Part shown: piece after piece, positions 73 through 2,255 of the stretch
Position numbering within the stretch: position 1 is the stretch's first letter
Layout: each line of letters starts with the position of its first letter
Origin: Burkholderia contaminans
Lineage (GTDB): Bacteria; Pseudomonadota; Gammaproteobacteria; Burkholderiales; Burkholderiaceae
Direction: 5' to 3'
Assembly (NCBI RefSeq): GCF_029633825.1
Contig: NZ_CP090640.1
Coordinates: 1,426,001 to 1,490,000, forward strand
Length of the DNA stretch: 64,000 nucleotides
The notes under the pieces: model-generated
Told to the model about the DNA's origin: nothing
The model's database searches: none
What the model saw: only the letters and a program-made list of their open reading frames with translations
Translations under genes and position numbers: made by a program

Positions 73-96
73 GCGCGGGTCGGTAGCCGTCGTAGA

Positions 97-129
97 AACC
101 GGGCGTCCGAAAGGGCGCCCGGTTTTTTT
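97..129 (+). terminator. Rho-independent terminator after gltD
   Basis: An 8-bp stem, ACCGGGCG pairing with CGCCCGGT, encloses a 10-nt loop and runs into seven T residues. It lies 25 nt after the gltD stop. Its far side abuts the stop codon of the convergent gene on the minus strand. Confidence 0.85.
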
Positions 130-512
130 CATTTCTGAAGCAGCGGGGGCTTGCGAGCTTGTCCGGCTGGGGCAACCGTCTGCCCGTAGCTCGCAAGTTG
201 CTCGTTGCAATCGATCATCGCGGTGTATCGGGTTTCGGCGACGCGCAGTGGGAATTCCCATACGCCCAGCTTCCACGCGTGATACTGCGGCGCACCGTCG
301 AACCGGATGCTGCCCGGTGGTACTCCATGTTCCCCAAGACGCAGCAGGACCTTTTCTCGCAGCTTATCGAGAGACATGTCGGGACAACTGCCTTCCGTTC
401 TTTCATACCGGGAAGTTGCGACGATGCCGAACAGCAGCGTGTAGGCGCAGATCACTGCGACAACTAGCCCAAGAACTAGTTTGAGAACGCCGCGCACGAC
501 TTTGGAAATCAT
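129..512 (-). CDS. Membrane-anchored protein, probable immunity to the adjacent colicin M-like bacteriocin
   Basis: This 127-aa protein has one N-terminal membrane segment (about residues 9-31, rich in Leu, Val and Ala) and then a soluble part predicted to face the periplasm, with two cysteines (in EGSCPD and MIDCNE). It lies on the same strand and 75 bp downstream of the colicin M-like toxin gene. Colicin M attacks lipid II in the periplasm, and known M-type immunity proteins are inner-membrane-anchored with a periplasmic moiety; Burkholderia M-type immunity genes are reported next to the toxin gene. Topology, size and position therefore suggest immunity. This is inference, since I recognise no family motif. 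A shorter ORF on the opposite strand here (159-467) looks spurious. Confidence 0.65.
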   Translation of the reverse strand: MISKVVRGVLKLVLGLVVAVICAYTLLFGIVATSRYERTEGSCPDMSLDKLREKVLLRLGEHGVPPGSIRFDGAPQYHAWKLGVWEFPLRVAETRYTAMIDCNEQLASYGQTVAPAGQARKPPLLQK

Positions 513-587
513 GAATTGCTCGATATAGGCGCAAACAACTTGCGAGGTGCCCGGGCAGCCAAGTGGCTGGAACTGCCCGGGAGCATG

Positions 588-1721
588 TTAGCGGGGTGGC
601 CGCATCAATCCACCGAGCGATGGCCTGTGGACTGCCTGCGGGGGATGTACGCCTGCATTCTTGACAGGTCGTTGGCCTGAGAACGAGAGCTTTTTTTCAC
701 CGAAAAAATTAATTTGATAGTCCTTGTGTCCCAAGATGGAACCGAGTTTGGCCAGAAATGTTGTCGCAGCCTCCTGCAAGAACGGTCGGTTGGAAGGATC
801 TGCATCGAACTTGTCGGGATTGAGTGAGTAGTAGCCGTCAAACCGATATGTATCGTCTTCAAGCATCACAAGCGTGCCACGTATCCTGCCGGATACTCGC
901 CCAAAGACTGAGGCGCTCCAGAGATCTTGTGTCCCGTGACTGAAAATGTTGGTGCTGAAAGCAGTGTCGAACGAATAGACACCAGGGCCATATCCTGGAT
1001 TTTCAATGGCCTTCGTTATTTCTCTGAAATCGGCGACGCCCATTTTTAAATTTAGTGATTCAATGTTAACGGTTCGTTGGGTTCCGTCTCCGTGTATCCA
1101 ATGATTTATTGCTTCGACGAACATCAGTGGATTGCCATACGATTCGAATGTGCTCGTTGGAGGGATGCCGTGTGACTGACCAACATATATGCCAAATAGA
1201 GCGGTGATGTTGGCATATTGTCCGGGTTCGAAGTTGAACCCGTATTGGTTGGCGCCGGGTAGATGTTTGTAGCCGCCGATGGCCAGCCACGGAGTGAAGC
1301 CGCCAACCAGTGTTAGCTGATTGCGCCAGAATTTTGTGTCGTTGCTGCCGAAGATCTGGAGATGCTTGAGAAACATCTCGGTAGTGCGGACCATGTTTCC
1401 CGTGTTTGCAAAATGCAGCATGAAATTCGATGTGCAATATTCATTGAAGCAAACGGTAGGCGCTGGAATCCCGGCGCCAGGGTTAGCGCCGGGAATCTCA
1501 TTTACCTTGATGCCGAAGTCACCAAAATTGAAGTCTGGGGGCCTGGATGTTGTGATCGTGATCGGGGGGAGAACATTACTTTGACCCATGGCGGCTGTGT
1601 GTTTGAGTAGCGCGCCAAATGGAAGTGCGGTTGACGCAAACAGAAGGCGCCGCCGCATCAAAGACTGTTGGTTTTCTTCCGATGGCCGAGTTACATGTTT
1701 CAGAGGATTGCGCTGCGTCAT
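588..1721 (-). CDS. Colicin M-like bacteriocin (lipid II phosphodiesterase, burkhocin M type)
   Basis: The protein has 377 aa from the ATG at 1721, which has a weak GGGAT ribosome site; a GTG at 1823 has none. The C-terminal half follows the colicin M catalytic domain closely. GDGTQRTVNIESLNLKM corresponds to colicin M GNGAERSVNIANIGLKI, and later blocks YRFDGYYS, LAKLGSILGHKDYQI and FFGEKKL also match. The catalytic stretch of colicin M, D-x-Y-D then HR, appears here as DKFDADPSNR (about residues 303-312): the aspartates and Arg are kept, Tyr is Phe, and His is not evident. The N-terminus has RRRLLFASTALPFGALL, which resembles a Tat or Sec signal, followed by ITITTSRP, which resembles a TonB box. 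Colicin M enters target cells by TonB and cleaves lipid II, blocking peptidoglycan synthesis. A C-terminal tail of about 26 aa has no colicin M counterpart. The gene is AT-richer than its neighbours. Confidence 0.85.
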   Translation of the reverse strand: MTQRNPLKHVTRPSEENQQSLMRRRLLFASTALPFGALLKHTAAMGQSNVLPPITITTSRPPDFNFGDFGIKVNEIPGANPGAGIPAPTVCFNEYCTSNFMLHFANTGNMVRTTEMFLKHLQIFGSNDTKFWRNQLTLVGGFTPWLAIGGYKHLPGANQYGFNFEPGQYANITALFGIYVGQSHGIPPTSTFESYGNPLMFVEAINHWIHGDGTQRTVNIESLNLKMGVADFREITKAIENPGYGPGVYSFDTAFSTNIFSHGTQDLWSASVFGRVSGRIRGTLVMLEDDTYRFDGYYSLNPDKFDADPSNRPFLQEAATTFLAKLGSILGHKDYQINFFGEKKLSFSGQRPVKNAGVHPPQAVHRPSLGGLMRPPR

Positions 1722-2255
1722 TTCATATCCCGTGCAGTGGTTAAATTGAACTGTCGATTCGCATGCCTTAAGACTGCGACAGTCATTTTTTTCTGAGCGA
1801 TCTGCAAGAAATTTGTACACCACCGTTCGCGACGGAGTCGTCCGAAATGCTTTTGCAAAGCGATATCAAGAAAGGACCCGTGAGGAGGCGCGACGGCTTT
1901 CCTTATCCCGGAATTGACCCGAAACCCGCGCCGGCAGAGGAGATTCCGACGAAGTGCGGTCGATAGGCCTATCAGCTACCGCCGCATATCCTCCCGGTAC
2001 GCGTGACGAAATCCGGACGTAGAGACGTTCCCATCGGCATACCGCGGTTGGGACAGCAATGTGTCAAACGGTCACAGGATTGATTAAATTGAGAGAGCAT
2101 CGACGCCGCTCCACTTGGAAGGGATGGAACGTTTAATCGATGCGTCGCATCCTTTCAATTTGTAATTTCTCTTGTAAGTTGTCATATCATGTCGCCCCTC
2201 CGGTCGCATTCGCGCGGCCGCCTCACATGACCGACCCTATTTACAAGGATTCTGG
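1722..2255. other. Gene-less stretch between the bacteriocin gene and the AGCS symporter
   Basis: About 530 bases separate the divergent bacteriocin and symporter genes, so promoters for both should lie here. A possible promoter for the rightward gene is TTGTAA at 2160 with TATCAT at 2185 (19-base spacer). The part from 2085 to 2190 is clearly AT-richer than the rest. I see no convincing gene, tRNA or repeat. Confidence 0.4.

What the first reader, a model, noticed from the sequence alone, without database searches (positions are those of the whole stretch)
129..1721. Colicin M-like bacteriocin and a candidate novel immunity gene
A gene whose C-terminal half follows colicin M block by block lies with a small membrane-anchored protein gene on the same strand, in an AT-richer patch between gltD and an AGCS symporter. 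Burkholderia M-type immunity proteins are known to be unrelated to the E. coli one, so the small protein is a prime candidate. If correct, the strain makes a lipid II-targeting antibacterial protein.
Basis: partly seen in the sequence, partly recalled or inferred. Interest (0 to 1): 0.78.

Follow-up and report, generated by a model that had tools for sequence, protein, structure and literature searches.

The report
Known burkhocin M toxin and immunity
This Burkholderia stretch holds a gene for a secreted antibacterial protein (burkhocin M, a distant cousin of colicin M) and the small gene that protects its maker; both, most likely this very pair, were listed in a 2015 paper, so it is an ordinary, already described system.

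Summary
In detail: window 588-1721 (-) encodes a 377-aa protein whose C-terminal half is a ColM domain (PF14859, E=3e-16). A 127-aa, single-TM protein gene (129-512, -) follows 75 nt downstream on the same strand, in a 53% GC insert between gltD and an agcS symporter. It is not new. Ghequire & De Mot 2015 (PMC4661593) described these 'burkhocins M' and the 'BmiB' immunity type, at this same gene site. Their Table 1 row for B. contaminans LMG 23361 (377 aa, 86.7%; BmiB 127 aa, 75.8%) coincides with lengths and identities computed here. So the immunity gene is no novel candidate. The lipid II claim is inferred: the His that colicin M needs is absent in 15 of 15 intact homologues, and a 2021 review says no burkhocin was assayed. 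Small additions: the toxin's N-terminal LPPITIT segment resembles the TonB-box of 17 of 23 receptors in the same genome; the gltD site in 53 genomes holds toxin+bmiB (9), bmiB alone (12) or neither (32); a BmiB model aligns with Cmi so that its two conserved cysteines fall on Cmi C31/C107 (tentative); three phage contigs carry a related pair.

The parts
588..1721 (-). burM: burkhocin M-type bacteriocin precursor, 377 aa
   Evidence: PF14859 E=3e-16 over residues 196-351; 15 intact homologues aligned, the six others from the gltD site 53-87% identical
1584..1721 (-). signal peptide region (residues 1-46), twin-arginine pair R23 R24 followed by a weakly hydrophobic stretch
   Evidence: R23 and R24 invariant in 15 of 15; no signal-peptide predictor was run here; Tat predicted for 12 of 16 burkhocin strains in PMC4661593. 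Cleavage before Q47 is inferred by eye
1548..1571 (-). LPPITITT (residues 51-58): TonB-box-like segment at the mature N-terminus
   Evidence: L[PA].[IV].[VI] at this place in 15 of 15 toxins; the same pattern in the 60 residues up to the plug start in 17 of 23 TonB-dependent receptors of the own genome, 14 with LP
669..1136 (-). ColM catalytic domain (residues 196-351)
786..824 (-). active-site motif region LNPDKFDADPSNR (residues 300-312): D303 and R312 kept, Y->F, no His
591..668 (-). 26-aa C-terminal extension beyond the ColM domain, typical of burkhocins
   Evidence: domain ends at residue 351 of 377; 26-36 aa extension described in PMC4661593
129..512 (-). bmiB: immunity protein, 127 aa, N-terminal membrane anchor plus periplasmic domain with two conserved cysteines C43 and C102
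   Evidence: C43, C102, W85, Y36 invariant in the 18 members chosen for alignment A4; homologues in 24 of 101 genomes
94..127 (+). terminator-like hairpin after gltD, directly abutting the bmiB stop; left border of the insert
   Evidence: similarity to the window stops at 128-132 in 44 of 53 genomes
130..2150 (.). insert in the gltD-agcS intergenic site
   Evidence: similarity resumes at 2146-2152 in 41 of 53 genomes (8 resume at 2180-2278; 4, the own one included, match throughout)

Best explanation
It is a burkhocin M / BmiB bacteriocin-immunity pair of the ColM-beta clade, most likely the pair of Burkholderia contaminans listed in 2015. Mechanism, with its basis: the precursor is exported by Tat (inferred from the invariant RR and published predictions); once outside, its N-terminal LPPITIT box would be bound by the target's TonB after docking on an unknown outer-membrane receptor (inferred; box resemblance tested here); the C-terminal ColM domain then attacks a lipid-linked peptidoglycan precursor in the periplasm, probably lipid II (inferred from family; not assayed for any burkhocin as of the 2021 review). 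BmiB, anchored in the inner membrane with a periplasmic domain that probably holds a disulfide, blocks the toxin in the producer (shown by others for the BurM2/BmiB pair of B. ambifaria AMMD, not for this pair).
For: PF14859 and colicin M matches; BurM hallmarks: RR pair, N-terminal box, DKFDADPSNR motif (DKFDADSSNR in BurM2), 26-aa C-terminal extension, low-GC insert, gltD/agcS site (PMC4661593). BmiB hallmarks: length, one TM, two conserved Cys, downstream same strand. Lengths and identities equal the B. contaminans LMG 23361 row of Table 1: toxin 377 aa and 86.7% (327/377), BmiB 127 aa and 75.8% (100/132), measured here against the pair of G101, whose BmiB is 132 aa as in B. cepacia ATCC 25416. 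The tested pair seems to be in the set too: G011's toxin is 372 aa with DKFDADSSNR and its first Asp at 297, as BurM2, and 53% identical to the window's. The toxin was never found at this site without bmiB (9 of 9, one bmiB in two frames).
Against: Genomes here are unnamed, so identity with the LMG 23361 pair, and of G101 with ATCC 25416 (376 aa in the table; G101 gives 377 or, from its second Met, 376), rest on coinciding numbers. Colicin M's His235 has no counterpart (0 of 15), although H235A leaves colicin M 1.4% of its activity (PMC8469651 Table 1, passage seen), so the lipid II step may differ. No receptor is known. The experimentally tested relative is only about 53% (toxin) and 35% (immunity) identical (taking G011 as its stand-in). 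I found no test of either product of this window.
Confidence: 0.92

Rival explanations
1. Burkhocins use a ColM fold but kill otherwise than by colicin M-type lipid II hydrolysis (another substrate, another catalytic residue, or precursor binding and membrane damage).
For: No His lies in the motif region in 15 of 15 burkhocins, and none stands next to the Arg in the 3 phage homologues (L072 has one three residues before it); Tyr228 is Phe in 13 of 15; Asp229 is Lys or Glu in 2 of 15. The 2018 review reports lysis by a pectocin M1 mutant without lipid II activity (PMC5821083, passage). No burkhocin was assayed on lipid II (PMC8469651, passage).
Against: D303 and R312 are invariant, and the D297A mutant of BurM2 was inactive (PMC4661593); on G011's toxin, residue 297 is the first Asp of the motif, the counterpart of D303. 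H332, the nearly invariant His further on (14 of 15), is Arg in G101 and Ser in phage L072, so no substitute His is evident.
Confidence: 0.17
2. The toxin gene is a decayed remnant and only the immunity gene matters to this strain.
For: The toxin frame is split in 3 of 17 PF14859-positive genus genomes (G004, G007, G010), and bmiB stands alone in 12 of 21 bmiB-bearing gltD sites.
Against: In the window the frame is intact over 377 aa and keeps the RR pair, the N-terminal box, D303 and R312.
Confidence: 0.05
3. The 127-aa protein is an unrelated envelope protein, not the immunity partner.
For: It is found without the toxin in several genomes.
Against: It is linked to the toxin in 9 of 9 toxin-bearing gltD sites; the AMMD protein of the same type conferred immunity (PMC4661593); a small two-Cys protein follows the ColM-beta gene in 3 of 3 phage contigs, two of them compared and related to BmiB.
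Confidence: 0.03

Closest known systems
Burkhocin M of B. contaminans LMG 23361 with BmiB KKL41098 (Ghequire & De Mot 2015, Table 1)
   Same: Lengths 377 and 127 aa; 86.7% and 75.8% identity to the B. cepacia-type pair; immunity downstream on the same strand; Tat class in the table, RR pair here
   Different: Nothing detected; accession identity could not be checked
Burkhocin M2 / BmiB of B. ambifaria AMMD
   Same: Same glutamate synthase/symporter site, near-identical motif (DKFDADSSNR there, DKFDADPSNR here), same BmiB type; killing and immunity shown for that pair
   Different: About 53% (toxin) and 35% (immunity) identity if G011 stands for it; AMMD was predicted to have a Sec rather than Tat signal; this window's pair is untested
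Colicin M / Cmi of E. coli
   Same: ColM domain with D226 and R236 equivalents; single-TM periplasmic immunity protein with two Cys
   Different: No His235, Phe for Tyr228, signal peptide, C-terminal extension, same-strand immunity gene; no significant sequence match of BmiB to Cmi (hhalign probability 0.3%, E=0.18)
Pseudomonas PmiB-type ColM-beta pairs and the phage-borne pairs L071, L072, L150
   Same: ColM-beta toxin followed by a small two-Cys periplasmic protein; C-terminal half related (L071 and L072 compared)
   Different: Immunity proteins are lipoproteins (PmiB: PMC5277000, passage; phage ones: lipobox by eye); phage toxins L071 and L072 show no signal peptide by eye and lack the C-terminal extension

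Membership tests
Burkhocin M (BurM, ColM-beta) | ColM domain PF14859 at the C-terminal half | tested here: met
   E=3e-16, 59.8 bits, cut-off 27
Burkhocin M (BurM, ColM-beta) | 26-36 aa C-terminal extension beyond the ColM domain | tested here: met
   Domain ends at residue 351 of 377: 26 aa
Burkhocin M (BurM, ColM-beta) | Cleavable Tat or Sec signal peptide | tested here: inconclusive
   Invariant RR pair in 15 of 15 and a weakly hydrophobic stretch; no predictor was available
Burkhocin M (BurM, ColM-beta) | Conserved short segment at the mature N-terminus (TonB-box-like) | tested here: met
   LPPITITT; pattern in 15 of 15 toxins and in 17 of 23 own receptors
Burkhocin M (BurM, ColM-beta) | Asp and Arg of the motif kept, no His | tested here: met
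   D303, R312; no His in 15 of 15
Burkhocin M (BurM, ColM-beta) | Low-GC insert; BurM2-type clade between glutamate synthase and amino-acid symporter | tested here: met
   53% GC; gltD and agcS flanks
Burkhocin M (BurM, ColM-beta) | Kills Bcc strains | not testable with these tools
   Bench assay needed
Colicin M proper (ColM-alpha) | DxYDx5HR motif | tested here: not met
   DKFDADPSNR: no His, Tyr to Phe
BmiB immunity | ~126 aa, one N-terminal hydrophobic helix | tested here: met
   127 aa; hydropathy windows above 1.6 only within residues 1-35; helix 2-36 in the model
BmiB immunity | Two conserved cysteines | tested here: met
   C43 and C102 present; invariant in the 18 members chosen out of 28 matched stretches. 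Of the 10 left out, 6 have both, 3 are partial or split with one each, and one orphan (L061, G026) has Tyr at the second place
BmiB immunity | Protects against the cognate burkhocin | not testable with these tools
   Shown for the AMMD pair in PMC4661593, not for this one
Cmi / YebF | YebF signature (PF13995) | tested here: not met
   Not among the families listed at E<=1 for 18 BmiB members; none for the window protein
Cmi / YebF | Cmi fold with C31-C107 disulfide | tested here: inconclusive

The most novel reading that the evidence does not exclude
The whole ColM-beta burkhocin group works without the catalytic histidine that colicin M needs, so it either hydrolyses lipid II by another route or kills by a different reaction, while its BmiB immunity protein is a sequence-unrecognisable version of the Cmi fold with the same disulfide position.
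Probability: 0.15. Interest if true: 0.5.

Novelty: already known. Interest (0 to 1): 0.18.

Why it matters
The pair itself is described. What remains open and testable: burkhocins are spoken of as lipid II-degrading, yet they lack an essential colicin M residue and, by the 2021 review, were never assayed; that review also states that all burkhocins carry DxYD(x5)HR, which 15 of 15 sequences here contradict. The likeness of the toxin's N-terminal box to the TonB boxes of the host's own receptors gives a concrete import hypothesis.

Tried and rejected
NCBIfam, PADLOC and Pfam gave nothing for the small protein; over 18 BmiB members Pfam listed 11 families, each in one or two members, best E 0.01, which I take as chance. 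PDB phmmer gave nothing for it. The plasmid collection gave 429 records, all under 60% identity and all of enterobacterial genera (20 listed, at 26-28%); the phage collection gave one Pseudomonas Cma record, 26.5% to the window toxin and 29.5% to that of L071. Idea that H332 replaces His235: rejected, Arg in G101 and Ser in L072. AlphaFold model of the toxin (5 sequences): mean pLDDT 45, unusable, not searched. A Foldseek search of the BmiB model was never accepted; only the VIA-align second look at Foldseek's top 1000 chains was run. No promoter-like site above the shuffled expectation (1 found, 1.3 expected); the upstream alignment of 7 genomes showed no obvious operator by eye. No direct repeats of 12 or more nt at the two borders (shorter ones not tested); no integrase-like ORF noticed in the ORF list of the insert. 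Local similarity of the second-Cys context of BmiB to Cmi is mixed: shuffle p 0.0025 for the window protein, but p > 0.05 for 11 of 18 members. The window's species is not proven: B. contaminans is inferred from coinciding numbers. An earlier count said 44 genomes resume at 2146-2152; the recount gives 41 (44 is the number whose similarity stops at 128-132).

Full report
What is there. Window 588-1721 on the minus strand is an intact 377-aa frame; 75 nt after its stop, on the same strand, a 127-aa frame runs from 512 to 129. The larger protein matches Pfam Colicin_M (PF14859) at E=3e-16 over residues 196-351 and solved colicin M at 2e-10 and pectocin M at 8e-9. The interval between gltD and the agcS symporter (both confirmed by family models) is 2186 bp at 53% GC, against about 66-77% GC just downstream. 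The own genome has one PF14859 match.

What it is. The features are those of burkhocin M, described by Ghequire and De Mot in 2015 (PMC4661593; I read parts 1-3 of 5 of the text plus passages and Table 1): ColM domain, exported precursor, conserved segment at the mature N-terminus, a 26-36 aa tail after the ColM domain, a motif with Asp and Arg but no His (DKFDADSSNR in BurM2; [quoted passage not shown] The small gene has the marks of their BmiB immunity type: about 126 aa, one N-terminal helix, two conserved cysteines, downstream on the same strand. They showed that bmiB of strain AMMD protects sensitive strains against BurM2, and that Asp297 is needed for killing; in G011's 372-aa toxin, which has the BurM2 motif, residue 297 is the Asp that corresponds to D303 here.

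Probably the same pair. Their Table 1 lists, for B. contaminans LMG 23361, a 377-aa toxin (not annotated, 86.7% identical to that of B. cepacia ATCC 25416) and a 127-aa BmiB (75.8% identical to a 132-aa BmiB). Here the window toxin is 377 aa and 86.7% (327/377) identical to that of genome G101, and the small protein is 127 aa and 75.8% (100/132) identical to the 132-aa BmiB of G101. The three other close same-site pairs compared (G025, G045, G054) give 82-84% and 68-70%.

Homologues. A relative of the toxin was found in 16 of 101 genomes, and PF14859 in 17 of 65 genus genomes. From these I aligned 15 intact proteins of 14 genomes; three genomes with split frames (G004, G007, G010) were left out. 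R23, R24, D303 and R312 are invariant; no His lies in the motif region of any of the 15. The 2021 review's sentence that all burkhocins carry DxYD(x5)HR (PMC8469651, passages) does not agree with this, nor with the 2015 paper; the 2018 review notes degeneracy (PMC5821083, passages). The 2021 review says no burkhocin was tested on lipid II; the 2018 review says this of BurM1. The lipid II step is therefore an inference from the family.

Import. The segment LPPITITT follows the signal region. The pattern L[PA].[IV].[VI] is at that place in 15 of 15 toxins (14 with LP, 1 with LA), and in the 60 residues up to the start of the plug domain of 17 of 23 TonB-dependent receptors of the own genome (14 of 23 with LP). 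Shuffles of the same stretches give a mean of 0.25 (maximum 3) and 0.08 (maximum 2); long frames of the window hold 2 LP-type matches in 32,960 residues, the toxin's own presumably one of them. The pattern was chosen after seeing the sequences. The phage toxins L071 and L072 have a related LPPT start that does not fit the pattern. The 2015 authors proposed a TonB box from conservation alone; this agrees with them and ties the segment to the receptors' own boxes. It does not show which receptor is used.

The site. Of 65 genus genomes, 53 had the symporter at E<=1e-200, and all 53 regions taken held both flanks: toxin with bmiB in 9 (two with split toxin frames, one of them also with bmiB in two frames), bmiB alone in 12 (two copies in G024, G009 and G052; partial in G038), neither in 32 (27 with at most 400 bp between the flanks, 5 with about 1.3-1.4 kb of other DNA). 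Similarity to the window ends at 128-132, just after the gltD terminator, in 44 of 53; it resumes at 2146-2152 in 41, at 2180-2278 in 8, and is unbroken in 4, the own one included. Orphan bmiB genes are already reported. In G028 a stretch like the toxin's upstream region (1719-1914, 68%) remains beside an orphan bmiB, as if the toxin had been lost.

Phage relatives. Three IMG/VR contigs carry a ColM-beta gene followed at once by a small two-Cys protein with a lipobox-like start (L071, L072, L150). In L071 the pair lies between ninB/ninG-type genes and a holin; in L072 between ninG and a gene with a weak spanin match (E=8e-4). The small proteins of L071 and L072 match the BmiB profile (hhalign probability 94.9, E=4.8e-8); that of L150 was compared by eye only. 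phrog_37466, 'unknown function', matches the ColM domain of the window and of L071 and L072. PmiB lipoproteins and prophage-borne PmiA pairs are in print (PMC5277000, passages). One paper search (120 papers, 12 listed) showed no title about a phage-borne ColM-beta/PmiB pair; only titles and abstract starts were seen, so absence from print is not claimed.

Verdict. Already known, low interest.

Noticed in passing
L071:2731-3937, L072:2569-3773, L150:2908-4119: Phage contigs carry a ColM-beta toxin gene plus a small two-Cys lipoprotein-like protein (those of L071 and L072 related to BmiB), in L071 and L072 between ninG-type genes and lysis-type genes, a usual place of phage cargo genes; phrog_37466 ('unknown function') matches the ColM domain.
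   Followed up: partly
PMC8469651 against alignment A1: The 2021 review says all burkhocins carry DxYD(x5)HR; 15 of 15 intact homologues here lack the His, as the 2015 paper also says.
   Followed up: yes
L107 and L137 (G040, G004), gltD-agcS site: The same site holds a different small ORF of 168-175 aa, possibly lectin-like, instead of the bacteriocin pair; the resemblance is by eye only.
   Followed up: no
L113:4515-5755 (G101): Two ORFs that look like an insertion-sequence transposase pair lie between the toxin gene and the symporter; by eye only.
   Followed up: no
L133 (G024), L134 (G009), L136 (G052): Two bmiB-like copies in tandem at the gltD site without a toxin, one of them partial in G009.
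   Followed up: partly
L129 (G028): Orphan bmiB beside a remnant like the toxin's upstream region (window 1719-1914, 68%), suggesting toxin loss.
   Followed up: no
L061 (G026): An orphan bmiB-like frame has Tyr in place of the second conserved Cys, perhaps a decaying copy.
   Followed up: no
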